A DNA stretch of 64,000 nt from an uncultured Oscillospiraceae bacterium (GTDB lineage: Bacteria > Bacillota > Clostridia > Oscillospirales > Oscillospiraceae): positions 11,337 through 75,336 of the forward strand of contig CATMVA010000012.1 in NCBI GenBank assembly GCA_950075865.1, read 5' to 3'. This document shows, piece by piece, positions 31,390-39,500 of this stretch; position 1 is the first letter of the stretch, and every line of letters starts with the position of its first letter. A model generated the notes under the pieces. It was given only the letters and a program-made list of their open reading frames with translations, was not told the DNA's origin and did no database searches. The position numbers and the translations under genes are program-made.

Positions 31390-32283
31390 TTAAATATCAT
31401 CCTCTTCCGGCGGAAGAGGAGCCGCTGACCCGTCAGCGGCCCGGTTGGCCTTGCTCACCACAAGACGGATGTGTATGGTAAGGTACATCAGCTCCTCCAC
31501 ATTCAAGTCGTAGCGGTACTGCTTTTTCAGAAATTCGCTGACCTTCTTGGCGCAGCGGTAAGGCTCGGCGTACTTGACGAACACGATGTCGGCCAACTCT
31601 TCGCTGGACGCCTCGGCGTACTGATCCCCCCGAAGGACCCGGCGGGCAAAAAATTTCAGGTGAGTGATAAAACGGTAGTAGTAGCTGGAGCTGGTGTCAA
31701 ACTCCATCACAAAGCTCCGCCCCACAATGTTGAGCACGTCCTGAATGATCCTGGTGATGTGGAAGGTCTCGTCGATGGTGGAGTCCTCGGCCTCGGCGTT
31801 GACGATGTGCATGGCGATGAAGGCGGCTTCGGCCTCGGGGAGCTTCTCCCCAAAGGCCTCCTCCATCATGTCCAGGGCAAGGGTGCCGATCTCAAATTCC
31901 TTCTCGTAGAACTGCTTGATCTCCCAGGTGAGGCCGTTGGTGATGGCCATTCCCTCCTTCGCCCGCTGAAGGGTGTAGTAGAGATGGTCGGCCAGGGAGA
32001 TCACCAGGCTGTCGCTGAGCTTCTGCTCCAGGGCAAGCCTGGCCATCTGGACGATCCGGTCGGAAAGCTCGATATACTCCATGGGGAGCTCGGCAAGCAG
32101 CTTTTCCAGTTGAGCGGACACCTTGCCGTCGGCGGCCGGAGTGTAGGTCTTTTCCACCAGGGCCGGGTCCAGTTCATCCCCCACCCGCTTCTTGAAGCCG
32201 ATGCCCTTACCGCAGACGATCTTTTCTTTTTTCCCGTCCATGACCACCAGTGCGTTGTTGGTCAATATCCTCTCAATTCGCAC
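31390..32283 (-). CDS. PRD-domain transcription antiterminator (BglG/LicT family)
   Basis: RIERILTNNALVVMDGKKEKIVCGKGIGFKKRVGD and two PRDs; GTG start at 32283. Confidence 0.9.
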   Translation of the reverse strand: MRIERILTNNALVVMDGKKEKIVCGKGIGFKKRVGDELDPALVEKTYTPAADGKVSAQLEKLLAELPMEYIELSDRIVQMARLALEQKLSDSLVISLADHLYYTLQRAKEGMAITNGLTWEIKQFYEKEFEIGTLALDMMEEAFGEKLPEAEAAFIAMHIVNAEAEDSTIDETFHITRIIQDVLNIVGRSFVMEFDTSSSYYYRFITHLKFFARRVLRGDQYAEASSEELADIVFVKYAEPYRCAKKVSEFLKKQYRYDLNVEELMYLTIHIRLVVSKANRAADGSAAPLPPEEDDI

Positions 32284-32299
32284 AGGGCCACACCTCCCA

Positions 32300-32351
32300 G
32301 GCAAAAATAAAGACCCATTTACTCGCACTTCAACTGTGCGGTAAACAGGTC
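32300..32351 (-). terminator. Leader terminator of antiterminator gene, overlapping RAT-like element
   Basis: Minus strand GACCTGTTTACCGCAC-agttgaa-GTGCGAGTAAATGGGTC followed by TTTATTTTT. Confidence 0.65.
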
Positions 32352-32380: not shown

Positions 32381-32499
32381 GTTTATCTGTCAATAACATA
32401 GCATATCCCTTCCCGCTTTTCAACCTCTTTTCTCTCCGAAAAAATATTTTAGGCGTTTTCGACAGATTTTCGCCCTCTTTTTTGTGCATAACCCACAAC

Positions 32500-32534
32500 A
32501 AAAGGCGGGGCCCACAGGCCCCGCCTTTCCATGT
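32500..32534 (-). terminator. Rho-independent terminator of the Cys-rich peptide gene
   Basis: Minus strand AAAGGCGGGGCC-tgt-GGGCCCCGCCTTTTGTTG. Confidence 0.8.
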
Positions 32535-32561
32535 CTGTGCTGTCTTAGGTATCCGGTCTTA

Positions 32562-32717
32562 TCAGCAGCAGCCGTTGTTGCACCCACAGCCGTTGTTGCA
32601 GCCGCAGCCACAGCCACACCCGCCGCCGCAGCAGCAGATCAGGATGATGAGGATGAGGATGATCCAGCAGCAGCCACCGCCGCCGCCCCAGCCACAACCG
32701 TTATTGCAGCATCCCAT
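32562..32717 (-). CDS. 51-aa Cys/Gly-rich peptide with central hydrophobic helix (absent from ORF track)
   Basis: Minus strand MGCCNNGCGWGGGGGCCWIILILIILICCCGGGCGCGCGCNNGCGCNNGCC; RBS AGGAGG 10 nt upstream; own terminator downstream. Confidence 0.75.
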   Translation of the reverse strand: MGCCNNGCGWGGGGGCCWIILILIILICCCGGGCGCGCGCNNGCGCNNGCC

Positions 32718-32811
32718 AGTGAAGTACCTCCTAAAGAGATTTAGAAGTCCGGCGGTCTCCCGTCCGGCTTCACTTCATCTTATGCCGCCGCGTCTGATTG
32801 GTTCCGCTCCC

Positions 32812-33507
32812 CTAATTCGCTTGGGTCTCTCTGTCGGGCTCCCGTCTCTGGAGAAGCTTCTCCGCCCCCTCGGGCAGCTTCCCCATGGTGCCCACACACC
32901 GGTTAATGGGGGTACCCAGGTTGTAAAACTTCTCCTCATAGTCGGTCATGACCCCCACCGGACCGTTTTCATGCAGGTCCCGGGTCACCTCGGACAGGGC
33001 GAACCCCGCCTTGGGAAACTGGAACAGGGACCACTCATACAAATCATGGTTGTCTGTCTTGAAGTGGATCTGCCCCCCCTCCGCCAGCACCTTCCGGTAC
33101 CGGAGCAAAAACCCCGGATGGGTAAGCCGCCGCTTGGCATACCGGGCCCCAGGCCACGGGTCGCAGAAATTGATGTAGAGCCGGCTCACCTCCCCGGGGG
33201 CGAAATACTCCCCCAGGTCGGCCGCATCGGCGTCAATGAAAAAGACGTTTTGAAGTCCCATATCTCTGGCCCTCTCTGCGGCAATGACCATGGCGTCGGG
33301 CACCCGCTCCACCGCCACAAAGAGCACGTCCGGCTCAGCCTGGGCGGTCCCCACCGTAAAGCGCCCCTTGCCGCAGCCCAGCTCCACCCGGAGCTCCCGC
33401 GCCTGGGGCATCAACTCCCGCCAGCACCCCCGGTGCTCCTTCGGCTCCGTGACCACCAAATCGCCGCAGGCCACCAACCGTGCGTCCAGATTCGGCTTCT
33501 TTCTCAT
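32812..33507 (-). CDS. trmB: tRNA (guanine-N7-)-methyltransferase
   Basis: LRVELGCGKGRFTV...LYINFCDPWPGARYAKRRLTHPGFL. Confidence 0.93.
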   Translation of the reverse strand: MRKKPNLDARLVACGDLVVTEPKEHRGCWRELMPQARELRVELGCGKGRFTVGTAQAEPDVLFVAVERVPDAMVIAAERARDMGLQNVFFIDADAADLGEYFAPGEVSRLYINFCDPWPGARYAKRRLTHPGFLLRYRKVLAEGGQIHFKTDNHDLYEWSLFQFPKAGFALSEVTRDLHENGPVGVMTDYEEKFYNLGTPINRCVGTMGKLPEGAEKLLQRREPDRETQAN

Positions 33508-33684
33508 TCTCAAAAGGATCCCCTCCAAAATTCGGGTTTCTTTTATCTTATCACGCTTTTTCAAAAAAGTCGATATCCCCTTGCTTTTTCCTTTCTCAAA
33601 GTCTATGATTATGGGGGCAAAACCCCCGAAAATGGCCTCAAACCTGCCCCAAAAACTCTCTTTTCATCGAAGGAGGCAATTTCC

Positions 33685-34692: not shown

Positions 34693-34767
34693 CCGGGTGT
34701 AGCCTATCGGTTAGGCACTTGGTTTGGGACCAAGCCCAGGCTGGTTCGACTCCAGTCACTCGGACCA
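34693..34767 (+). tRNA. tRNA-Pro (anticodon TGG)
   Basis: CCGGGTG acceptor, CTTGG-TTTGGGA-CCAAG anticodon arm, GGTTCGACTCC T arm, encoded CCA. Confidence 0.93.
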
Positions 34768-34830
34768 TGAAGAAGCTACATTTTGCCTTGCAGTAAAGGC
34801 GTAGATGTAGCTTCTTCATATAATTTTTAT
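34768..34830 (+). terminator. Terminator after tRNA-Pro
   Basis: tgaagaagctacat...atgtagcttcttca hairpin followed by tataattttt. Confidence 0.7.
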
Positions 34831-34993
34831 CCACAGTCTTTAAACAAATAATGTGATATAATAGCAACTGTAATATTAAGGAGGCTTCTTAATACTGTCC
34901 GATTCTAACTATGCTAAAATTCTAAACTATTTCGATCGTCAGTTTTGGAGTGGAAAGACCGATGAAACGAACTGGTCCTATTATGGAATTATA

Positions 34994-36361
34994 TTGGATT
35001 GGTATTTCGATAATTCAGTTCTTTGTGTTGACTACTTGGATATTGCAGACTATTTTAGCAGTAATGGGGGGTTTTCTTTTTCTGAAACTGAACTTTTTTC
35101 AAAGCAGTACGTAGCAGTCGAGGGCCAAAAACGCTTAGAACTTATCCAAGCCATTTTAAACTTAATAAGAATGTCAACCGTAAATACCGAACAGAGTAAG
35201 CACATTATTTCGGTGATTACAAATGTATTGGCTCGTGATGCAGTTACAGTTATTGTTCCAGAAAGCGGCCCCATATCCATAAAGCTCAATGATATTCTTG
35301 ATTCCGGATCTTATTGTAACATTATTCGGGTAAAAGATGGAATATTGCGAAAAGAGTTGCGAGCTGTCTATAAAGATGACCCAAAACTGCAAAAAAGGAT
35401 GCAGTATGAGTATGAAAATATGGCCAAGTTGTCTGGATGCCCGCAAATTCTCAACGTCTTTGGATATGATGACGCAACTCATTCTTATCTTATGGAACAA
35501 GCAGATATGAATTTAGCAACATATCTTGAAAGCGAAATTGACCTTTCTTTTGAGGAACGACTTAAAATAGTTATGGATATCCTGCATGGCATGAGCTATG
35601 CGCATAATCACTCAATCATCCATCGGGATTTGCACTTGGGAAATGTTCTGAAAATTGGGAGCGACTATGTTATATGCGATTTTGGATTAAGTAAGGACCT
35701 TTCGATTGTTCGTAGTATGAAATCGTCATATACTCAGAAAAACAACCATCTTTTTGTAGACCCGCTGGCATTAACTGATTTCACCCTGCTGGATCAAAAA
35801 AGCGATATTTACTCCCTCGGCAAAATGATGGACTATATCTTCACCTGCAATGCGCCAACAGCAGATCGTGTTTTCAAAACTATTGTTGAACGATGTATTT
35901 GCCGTGACAAAGCTCTGAGATATAGTTCAGTAGATCAGATTATTGCCGATATGGAAAACACATTGAACGCTCAGTCAGAAGAGGATAGAAAAAGAGGTAT
36001 TGTTTCAAAAATCCTGAATAACCAGTACGATGTACAAGTGCAAGAATATATAATCGGGCTTGTTGAATCTGATAGACTAAGTAAGTTCATTGTAGCTAAT
36101 AAGCTACAATCTTTTTGGAAATTGATTCTTAGATTTGAGTCTGTATACCAAGTTCAAATTCTTCGTTCCATTGAAACCGGCTATTCGGCGGCAACAGGAT
36201 ATGGCGGTTGGGCAAACTATGATATTTTTGCCACAGTTGCTTATAACTTGTGTATACATCTGCCAGATGGAGAGCCAAAAGCAATTGCCAGGCACATCTT
36301 GGAGGGCTGCGCAAATATTCGTTACTATGCGCAAGATTTGCTTGAACGCCTTCCCATATAG
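34994..36361 (+). CDS. Ser/Thr protein kinase domain protein (true start probably upstream near 34892-34895)
   Basis: IIHRDLHLGNVLKIGSDYVICDFGLSKDL...KSDIYSLGKMMDYI. Confidence 0.82.
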   Translation: MDWYFDNSVLCVDYLDIADYFSSNGGFSFSETELFSKQYVAVEGQKRLELIQAILNLIRMSTVNTEQSKHIISVITNVLARDAVTVIVPESGPISIKLNDILDSGSYCNIIRVKDGILRKELRAVYKDDPKLQKRMQYEYENMAKLSGCPQILNVFGYDDATHSYLMEQADMNLATYLESEIDLSFEERLKIVMDILHGMSYAHNHSIIHRDLHLGNVLKIGSDYVICDFGLSKDLSIVRSMKSSYTQKNNHLFVDPLALTDFTLLDQKSDIYSLGKMMDYIFTCNAPTADRVFKTIVERCICRDKALRYSSVDQIIADMENTLNAQSEEDRKRGIVSKILNNQYDVQVQEYIIGLVESDRLSKFIVANKLQSFWKLILRFESVYQVQILRSIETGYSAATGYGGWANYDIFATVAYNLCIHLPDGEPKAIARHILEGCANIRYYAQDLLERLPI

Positions 36362-36563
36362 CAATTTCAGATGTCTTTTCAAGGGGCAATATTTGATTAA
36401 AATAGGCGTTTGAATTCAATTACAAAAATGAAATTGCTAATGAAGTCAGTTTCCCTCTCTTTTATCCCTTTTGCATGTTGTTAAATCTGTGATAATGAAT
36501 TTGTAAGACTTTTCTTCAGAGAAAATACCTAAGCCTATAATAACGGACTTATGGAGGTTTAGC

Positions 36564-39500
36564 ATGAATTTGAATCATGTGCTTACAGCAAACGAAATTG
36601 ATGCTTGGGCCAGAGAAAATCCAAGGCGGGCCCAAGAACTATTGCCAGAACTGATTATACGTCTTATCCTATGCACTTCTTCTGAAATAAGAAATTTTAA
36701 TTTCCCTATTGAAAAAGGAATCCAGTATTCTGGATATGACGGTGCGCTGGATTCTGGCAAGTCTTCAAGCTATTTCCCGGAGGGGAAATCTGTTTGGGAG
36801 TTTGGTACAAACGAGGATGCTCTGGGAAAATTTAAGTCTGATATTGAAAAAAGACATTGTAATCCTTTAGGTGTTGATGTAAAAGAAACAGCATTTATTT
36901 TTGCCACTTTAAAGATATGGAACCACAGAACTTCGATAGAAGAAATCGTAAATGAAAGTAAAGGCAAGTATAGTTGGAAAGACATTCGGATCATAGATGG
37001 TAGCAAGATTTCCCTTTGGATACAATCACATAGTGCTGTTGCGGCGTGGTTTGCAAATGCCATAGGAAAACATATAAATGGTATCCGCACCATTGAAGAT
37101 TTTTGGAATGACTATAGTCAAAGTGCGTCTCCAAATCTTAATAAGGATTATTTTTTGCTTGGCAGAGAAGCTCAAATCGATCAGTTGTCAAAATGGCTTG
37201 AGCAGAAGTCCGGCTCTCTTACCTTGATTTCTGAATCATCATTGGAATCCGTCCTATTTATTTCTGCTTATTTGTTGGCTAATCGTGAAAAAAACAATTC
37301 GATATTGAATAAAACTCTCATCGTTGAGTCCCCGGAGGAATGGAATAATTTTATTGTGGGGAACGAAAGAGATTGCCTCCTTATCCCGACTTTTAACTTT
37401 ACGGAAGATATTCGCTGTCCATCGGACATGTTTATCATTCTTCCGGTAGCAAAATACTCCCCATTATCAAAGATTACAAAAAATATTGATTCAGTAAAAA
37501 TCGACAAGCGTCCCAAAGCCGTATACCACAAGGCATTGGAGTCGCTTGGTTTTAAACCCACAGATTTTTCAAAAATTGAAACAGAGACGAAAAGAAGCTT
37601 TTTGCCATTCTATCGGATGATTACCAAGTTGTCCACCAGGAAAAGTCCGAGATGGCTATCCGAGCCAGGTTTACAGGATCTTATCCCCGCTTTTCTGGTC
37701 GGCGGATGGAATGGTGACTCAGAGGGAGATCGAAAGGCAATCGCAGCAATAAGTGGGCTAAATTATGAGGATTATGTCTGTCGAATCAACAAATGGTTGG
37801 CTGTAGAAGATGCTCCTATTTTCAAAGTTTTTAACACTTATCAGATTGTGTCCGTTCAAGACATGTGGACATTTTTATACGAATCATTGACAGAGGATCA
37901 AGTAAAGAGATTCAGAGAATGTGTCATTGCTGTTTTGGGAGCAACAGATCCAGCGTTTCAACTTCCAGAAGAGCAATGGGCATTTGCATCTGTTTATGGG
38001 AAAGTGTCAAAATATTCCGAACTATTGCGAGAAGGTCTGACCATTAGTTTGATTTTACTTTCAGAGCAAGGCAATCGAGAAAATAATTTCAATGTTGTTT
38101 CTGCTGAGCGCTATGTTTACCTTTTAGTTCAAGAAATCTTTCATTCTATCAACACATGGGAGGAGTGGAATACCATAGCTCCTTCTCTGATGGCGCTGGC
38201 AGAAGCCTCGCCAGAAGCAGTTCTTGAAAAATTAGAGCAAGAAATTTCAAACGGTAAAAGTGAAATGTGGCATCTCTTTAAGCCGGCAAAAGATGTCCTT
38301 ACTGGCCCAAGCAATTATACCCACATACTTTGGTCATTGGAACAGCTTGTTTGGTACCGAAGCTATGTAGTGCGTGCCATAGATCTGCTCGTTGCTATCA
38401 ATGAAAAACAATTTGAATATACCCTTGCGAATTCTCCAATTAACACATTGTATGATATTTTTTGCACCTGGTATTCCCAAAGCTGCCTTAATTGCGAAGA
38501 AAAGATAGAACTTCTCAAAAAAATATGTAAACACAACCCGACGACAGGAGAAGCTTTGATTAATAAGCTAATTCCTACAGGGCCTGCTTCTTGCGGGAGT
38601 ATTCAAAAACCCAGGTGGCATAGTTTTGATACAGAATTTCAGGAGAAAGTGACATATGCAGAATACAACTCCACACTGCAGGCAATCGCAAATATTGCGG
38701 TAAGTGAGGCTACTACGACAGCTCAATGGTGTACCATCGTGAACCACGCTTTGTTTTTCTTCCGCTTTGACGAACAGTGGCTTGAGAAGCTTAGTGAATA
38801 CTGCACAAATATCTCCGAGGTCGAGAAGCAAGAAATTGCAAACTCTTTGCGCTCGGAAATTAGTAGAAACAGAGAGTTTTGTAGTGCAGACTGGTCTATG
38901 CCAGAAGAATTCTTGTCGCAGATGGAGACAGTACTACTACAAATTTTGCCAAACAATATAGGACAATATACATACTTATTTCAGCATCATCCTGCTCTTT
39001 TACATCCCATTCCATACGATAAAGATCACTTTAGCTACGAGAAAGAGCAAGACTACCTCCGAACCGTTCGAATGGAAACTATTCATAATATTTTAAGTAG
39101 CTTCGGTCCTGATTCGCTGGTTGACTTTTCTCTCCAAGCGGAAAGCACAAGTGAATTAGCAGAAGTCATTGCTTCTAAGGTCCTTCACAACACATATGAC
39201 TTCCCCCTCATCCTAAAAACGAAAGAGAATGCTTCGCTTTATTCTTCTGTTTTACATCAACTTTAGCAGCTCAATGGATTGGAGGCATTTTTACTTGCAT
39301 TAAAAGATGCACCTCTTACCAATGAAGAGAAAGCCGATATGATATGCAATAGCCCATTGGATCCTGAAATCTGGATAAGGCTTGATGATTTGGATAACGG
39401 AATTGCCCGATACTATTGGGAACATATCAACGCCCTTGCTCTTTTGGGGCGAAGTGATGAGCGTGATGAGCGTATAGATTATTTCCTTAGTCAGTTGCTT

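What the first reader, a model, noticed from the sequence alone, without database searches (positions are those of the whole stretch)
32500..32745. Unannotated 51-aa peptide with 16 cysteines around a hydrophobic helix
Minus strand MGCCNNGCGWGGGGGCCWIILILIILICCCGGGCGCGCGCNNGCGCNNGCC. It has a textbook RBS (AGGAGG-N10-ATG) and its own strong terminator, i.e. a complete monocistron that the ORF track omits. The Cys/Gly/Asn composition with a central Ile/Leu stretch suggests a membrane-inserted, metal-binding or crosslinked (spore or envelope) peptide, or a modified-peptide precursor.
Basis: partly seen in the sequence, partly recalled or inferred. Interest (0 to 1): 0.6.

Follow-up and report, generated by a model that had tools for sequence, protein, structure and literature searches.

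The report
Tiny cysteine-rich spore-envelope peptide family
A real, overlooked 51-residue cysteine-rich peptide gene belongs to an unnamed family found across Clostridia, and its conserved promoter suggests it is switched on late in spore formation, probably to help build the spore's tough outer envelope.

Summary
Window 32717-32562 (-) encodes a 51-aa peptide with 16 Cys, AGGAGG-N9-ATG and a strong terminator hairpin. It is a real gene: all 15 same-genus genomes searched carry relatives, dN/dS is about 0.11, and the genome holds a second, differently placed paralogue. The family (short Gly/Asn/Cys head, W-I-I-L hydrophobic core, CCCG, CGCGNN tail) occurs in 68 of 291 sampled Clostridia-class genomes and matches no Pfam or NCBIfam model.

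Where the -10 is present the -35 is AC in 41 of 42 and ATA in 1, the published sigma-K rather than sigma-E signature. A strict version occurs three times in the genome, twice upstream of the two paralogues. Peptide-bearing genomes are nearly all spoIVA-positive (64/68 versus 144/223).

Best reading: a late mother-cell sporulation peptide, disulfide-crosslinked into the coat or exosporium. Expression timing is well supported by sequence; the envelope role is inferred.

The parts
32562..32717 (-). CDS of the 51-aa Cys-rich peptide MGCCNNGCGWGGGGGCCWIILILIILICCCGGGCGCGCGCNNGCGCNNGCC (stop included)
   Evidence: translation; relatives in 15/15 same-genus genomes; dN/dS 0.11
32727..32732 (-). Shine-Dalgarno AGGAGG, 9 nt before ATG; GGAGGTACTTC is conserved in the orthologues
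   Evidence: sequence; alignment of orthologues
32800..32805 (-). -35-like element GGAACC (AC at 32802-32801)
   Evidence: conserved in orthologues and paralogues; AC is the published sigma-K -35 (PMC3789822)
32776..32784 (-). -10-like element CATAAGATG, 16 nt from the AC of the -35
   Evidence: 15/15 group A loci keep AC-N16-CATANNATR; one of only three strict matches in the genome
32745..32774 (-). 5'-UTR hairpin GAAGCCGG...CCGGACTTC just after the predicted transcription start
   Evidence: individual folds of most group A leaders form it; the RNAalifold consensus keeps only part of it
32495..32528 (-). intrinsic terminator: 12-bp G+C-rich stem, then TTTTGTTG
   Evidence: fold, z = -2.58 for the 92-nt stretch; most orthologues have a G+C-rich hairpin at the same place
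32812..33564 (-). trmB (tRNA guanine-N7 methyltransferase), the gene upstream of this copy in most genomes of the genus
   Evidence: Pfam PF02390 2.8e-37; conserved neighbour
31390..32328 (-). LicT/BglG-type antiterminator downstream; not conserved as a neighbour
   Evidence: Pfam CAT_RBD and PRD; its cluster is confined to the own locus

Best explanation
This is a small protein made late in sporulation in the mother cell, transcribed from its own sigma-K-type promoter. It belongs to a family found across Clostridia and present as two paralogues in this genome. The hydrophobic W-I-I-L core probably attaches the peptide to, or packs it at, the outer forespore membrane or coat surface, while the many cysteines in flexible Gly/Asn segments are reduced when made and later form disulfides, so that many copies become crosslinked into the spore coat or exosporium. 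Shown: the gene, its conservation, the family, the promoter signature and the association with sporulating genomes. Inferred: actual sigma-K dependence, location on the spore, membrane attachment and crosslinking.
For: Promoter: group A 15/15 and group B 11/12 loci carry AC-N16/17-CATANNNT/G. 41 of 76 held-out family genes from other genera carry AC-N15..17-CATANNNT in the 150 nt upstream against a shuffle mean of 2.0 (maximum 7 in 300 shuffled sets) and 0.023 per 138 nt elsewhere in the same loci; 41 of 56 loci and 18 of 21 families. Given a -10, AC is present in 41/42 and ATA in 1/42 (backgrounds 16% and 14%); published: sigma-E and sigma-K share the -10, ATA marks sigma-E and AC marks sigma-K (PMC3789822). 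In the 2.29-Mb genome AACC-N15/16-CATANNATR occurs three times, two being the two paralogues. In most tandem pairs only the first gene has the promoter. The genome carries spoIVA and two strong sigma-E/K-type factors. Co-occurrence: 64/68 peptide-positive versus 144/223 peptide-negative Clostridia have spoIVA, Fisher p = 4.4e-7. Two relatives lacking both spoIVA and strong sigma-E/K-type factors (G023, G030) lack the peptide. Purifying selection. Precedent: unrelated Cys-rich proteins such as CsxA self-assemble into disulfide-linked spore layers (PMC7333573).
Against: No transcript, proteome or mutant data. About two thirds of spoIVA-positive Clostridia have no detectable member (144 of 208), though a short low-complexity query loses distant members. 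Four peptide-positive genomes lack a spoIVA match, three of them reported 98-99% complete. Genomes are related, so the Fisher value overstates independence, and several held-out promoters come from one genus. Only 54% of held-out genes have the strict motif. The spoIVA upstream regions gave no useful sigma-E comparison. The structure prediction was uninformative (mean pLDDT 44). The core is short for a transmembrane helix.
Confidence: 0.7

Rival explanations
1. A sporulation-linked metal-binding peptide: CGCGCGC and CNNC stretches chelate Zn, Cu or Fe in the mother cell or spore envelope like a membrane-tethered metallothionein.
For: 16 Cys in 51 residues with repeated C-x-C spacing; the tail stays Cys-rich though its length varies. 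Compatible with the sigma-K-type promoter.
Against: Tail length and Cys number vary freely (6 to 18 Cys), unlike a fixed binding site; no metal transporter or metal regulator was seen to recur nearby; no match in solved structures.
Confidence: 0.13
2. A small membrane protein of the growing cell (stress, envelope or redox), expressed vegetatively; the CATA-type element is coincidental or a secondary promoter.
For: Neighbours are housekeeping genes: trmB, yceG/mltG, fthC, tmk; trmB lies 95 bp upstream on the same strand.
Against: The promoter signature is enriched about 20-fold over shuffles in unrelated gene contexts; in group B and many other loci the peptide is on the strand opposite to its neighbours, so it is not driven by them; no sigma-70 promoter was found upstream of the gene.
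Confidence: 0.12
3. Precursor of a ribosomally made, modified peptide.
For: Small, Cys/Gly/Asn-rich, with a strong ribosome-binding site and a head-core-tail layout.
Against: No recurring modification enzyme or exporter gene near the roughly 45 loci examined; no Pfam or NCBIfam precursor family; the hydrophobic core is the most conserved part.
Confidence: 0.04
4. Spurious ORF in a G+C-rich low-complexity stretch.
For: The DNA is partly repetitive (18-bp and 6-bp units).
Against: dN/dS 0.11-0.13, frame kept through indels, RBS and promoter conserved, paralogue elsewhere.
Confidence: 0.01

Closest known systems
[quoted passage not shown]
   Same: Cys-rich; belong to the spore surface built in the mother cell (for the window peptide by promoter inference); proposed disulfide crosslinking.
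   Different: Those are larger (recalled; CsxA has 25 cysteines, PMC7333573) and, as far as I recall, lack a single short hydrophobic core. No sequence family match here.
YjcZ / tiny_TM_bacill family (TIGR01732, PF09680)
   Same: From memory: very short proteins of spore formers with a Gly-rich variable part next to a strongly hydrophobic stretch.
   Different: No family member scanned matches the Pfam or NCBIfam model, and TIGR01732 over 35 peptide-bearing genomes gave no match over cut-off. The present family is Cys-rich, has a near-invariant Trp and a CCCG end to the core.
Metallothioneins
   Same: High Cys content with C-x-C spacing.
   Different: Hydrophobic core, variable Cys number, sigma-K-type promoter; no family match.
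Bacterial proteins that, as I recall, public databases name 'chorion class high-cysteine HCB protein 13'
   Same: Possibly the same or a related group of Cys-rich clostridial small proteins; recalled, not tested.
   Different: The only paper in the library with the name is on silkworm material, so a relation could not be checked.

Membership tests
sigma-K regulon (late mother-cell sporulation genes) | -10 CATANNNT-type element with AC (not ATA) at -35 | tested here: met
   consensus from PMC3789822
sigma-K regulon (late mother-cell sporulation genes) | expression lost in a sigK mutant | not testable with these tools
   no expression data
sigma-K regulon (late mother-cell sporulation genes) | host genome encodes sporulation genes and sigma-E/K factors | tested here: met
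   spoIVA 4.7e-213; two sigma factors at 267 and 260 bits, under the sigma-K model's cut-off of 298.65 as in 59 of 60 relatives
Cys-rich self-assembling spore-envelope proteins (CsxA/CdeC/CotY kind) | high cysteine content | tested here: met
   16 of 51 residues
Cys-rich self-assembling spore-envelope proteins (CsxA/CdeC/CotY kind) | found on spores and forms disulfide-linked arrays | not testable with these tools
   needs spore proteomics and microscopy
YjcZ / tiny_TM_bacill (TIGR01732, PF09680) | match to the family model over its cut-off | tested here: not met
Ribosomally made modified peptides | modification enzyme encoded nearby | tested here: not met
   no recurring enzyme cluster among neighbours; neighbours identified by eye and partly by Pfam
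Metallothionein | metal binding through Cys clusters | not testable with these tools
   no family match

The most novel reading that the evidence does not exclude
An unnamed, Clostridia-wide class of tiny sigma-K-controlled peptides with one architecture (flexible Cys/Gly/Asn arms around a short W-I-I-L core) forms a membrane- or coat-attached disulfide mesh, a building principle of the spore surface different from the larger Cys-rich lattice proteins known so far.
Probability: 0.35. Interest if true: 0.75.

Novelty: new variant of a known kind. Interest (0 to 1): 0.6.

Why it matters
Spores carry many gut Clostridia between hosts, yet many coat proteins known from Bacillus are not conserved in Clostridia, and PMC3533761 names low-complexity proteins as candidates for unidentified coat components. 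This family gives a class-wide candidate with a testable promoter, absent from family databases and easy to miss because it is short and low in complexity. The promoter signature is a practical handle for finding further late sporulation genes in uncultured gut Clostridia.

Tried and rejected
Pfam and NCBIfam scans of single members and of 45 diverse members: only weak, scattered hits to hydrophobic segments. Solved-structure search: none. Single-sequence AlphaFold: uninformative. spoIVA upstream regions as a sigma-E yardstick: no CATANNNT in most, not useful. Two own-genome promoter patterns were mis-specified (spacer one base short, strict A at the end) and so missed the known copies; corrected. 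Plasmid search: nothing. Phylum-wide survey: 5 of 300 at E <= 0.001, so the detected family is concentrated in class Clostridia. Papers: none found describing this family.

Full report
OBSERVATION. The peptide is in the window exactly as described: minus strand, ATG at 32717, TGA at 32564-32562, 51 residues with 16 Cys, 17 Gly and 6 Asn. AGGAGG precedes ATG by nine bases and a 12-bp G+C-rich stem followed by TTTTGTTG lies at about 32528-32495. Pfam identifies the upstream neighbour as trmB (Methyltransf_4, 2.8e-37) and the downstream one as a LicT/BglG-type antiterminator.

IT IS A GENE. The own genome holds a second copy, 70% identical over the aligned part, on another contig. All 15 other genomes of the genus have at least one relative at E <= 1e-5, and 27 of 60 genomes (own included) have one at E <= 0.01. 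Nearly all have an SD and ATG, and most have a G+C-rich hairpin downstream. In 13 orthologues of the window copy dN/dS is 0.11, in 10 members of the other group 0.13, with differences concentrated at third codon positions.

THE FAMILY. An alignment of 22 members shows an invariant Cys-x-Trp at the start of the core and Cys-Cys-Gly at its end. With it, 68 of 291 genomes sampled evenly from the class have a member at E <= 0.01, and 5 of 300 sampled across the phylum at E <= 0.001. Members range from about 29 to 68 residues; some are tandem pairs and two contain two hydrophobic cores. No Pfam or NCBIfam model covers them.

WHERE IT SITS. Group A (the window copy) lies downstream of trmB on the same strand. 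Group B lies next to yceG/mltG, on the strand opposite to it, and in many genomes between it and 5-formyltetrahydrofolate cyclo-ligase, in the cluster thymidylate kinase, DJ-1/PfpI, cyclo-ligase, peptide (reverse), yceG/mltG, U32 peptidase; parts of this arrangement recur in other genera and families. In the own genome the group B copy is flanked by yceG/mltG and a WecG-type glycosyltransferase instead. Elsewhere members sit beside formate-THF ligase, mutL, or between two other genes, repeatedly on the opposite strand (names there are by eye). The peptide therefore behaves as an independent unit. No modification-enzyme cluster recurs.

THE PROMOTER. Aligning upstream regions revealed a conserved element in both groups: GCACC or GGAACC, 16-17 bases, then gCATAnnATR. 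Group A 15/15 and group B 11/12 have it. Two group A type loci from other genera keep it without trmB upstream, so trmB coding cannot explain it (L048, L061). I then tested the rule AC-N15..17-CATANNNT on family genes from other genera and families: 41 of 76 carry it within 150 nt, against a mean of 2.0 and a maximum of 7 in 300 shuffled sets and 0.023 per 138 nt elsewhere in the same loci. By locus the count is 41/56, by family 18/21. Many of those without it are second genes of tandem pairs. Where the -10 exists, the -35 is AC in 41/42 and ATA in 1/42. In C. difficile the two mother-cell sigma factors share the -10 and differ by ATA (sigma-E) versus AC (sigma-K), as in B. subtilis (PMC3789822). 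In the 2.29-Mb genome AACC-N15/16-CATANNATR occurs three times: the two paralogues, and one upstream of a 211-residue ORF of unknown family. Caveat: the rule was read off the genus and its close kin (five of the 76 held-out genes are from the same family), and the strict genome pattern was chosen after seeing both copies, so the held-out count is the independent test.

SPORULATION GENES. The genome has spoIVA (4.7e-213) and two strong sigma-E/K-type factors. Across the class sample 64 of 68 peptide-positive genomes have spoIVA against 144 of 223 peptide-negative ones (Fisher p = 4.4e-7; relatedness not corrected). Two relatives lacking both spoIVA and strong sigma-E/K factors also lack the peptide (G023, G030).

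MECHANISM. Shown by sequence: an independent, conserved coding unit with a sigma-K-type promoter. Inferred: late mother-cell synthesis; the short hydrophobic core (15-17 residues, mean hydropathy 2.9-3.3) attaches the peptide to the forespore surface or drives its packing; the flexible Cys-rich arms crosslink. Unrelated Cys-rich proteins such as CsxA form disulfide-linked spore layers, and the authors proposed that diverse Cys-rich proteins in spore formers do the same (PMC7333573). A survey of sporulation genes named low-complexity proteins as likely unidentified coat components (PMC3533761). Metal binding is the main rival and could coexist. Structure prediction did not help.

VERDICT. It is an unnamed family, new in form but of a known kind (Cys-rich spore-envelope proteins). 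Confidence 0.85-0.9 that expression is late mother-cell, about 0.7 for the overall envelope explanation.

Noticed in passing
window 32774-32745 (-); L035-L059 leaders: Both paralogue groups have a hairpin at the very start of the predicted transcript, with variable sequence in the upper stem; possibly an mRNA-stabilising leader.
   Followed up: partly
window 34693-39266: A tRNA-Pro gene is followed by a protein-kinase-like ORF (34994-36361) and a 900-aa ORF (36564-39266), which looks like an insertion beside a tRNA.
   Followed up: no
L150 1501-2189 (G000:C10:10038): The third strict copy of the promoter pattern in the genome lies directly upstream of an SD and a 211-aa ORF without a Pfam match: a candidate late sporulation gene.
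   Followed up: partly
L069, L070, L072, L073, L088, L090-L093: One bacterial family carries the peptide as tandem pairs about 100-200 bp apart; in most pairs the promoter was found before the first gene and not before the second.
   Followed up: partly
L111, L116: Members with two hydrophobic cores in one peptide, as if fused from two units.
   Followed up: no
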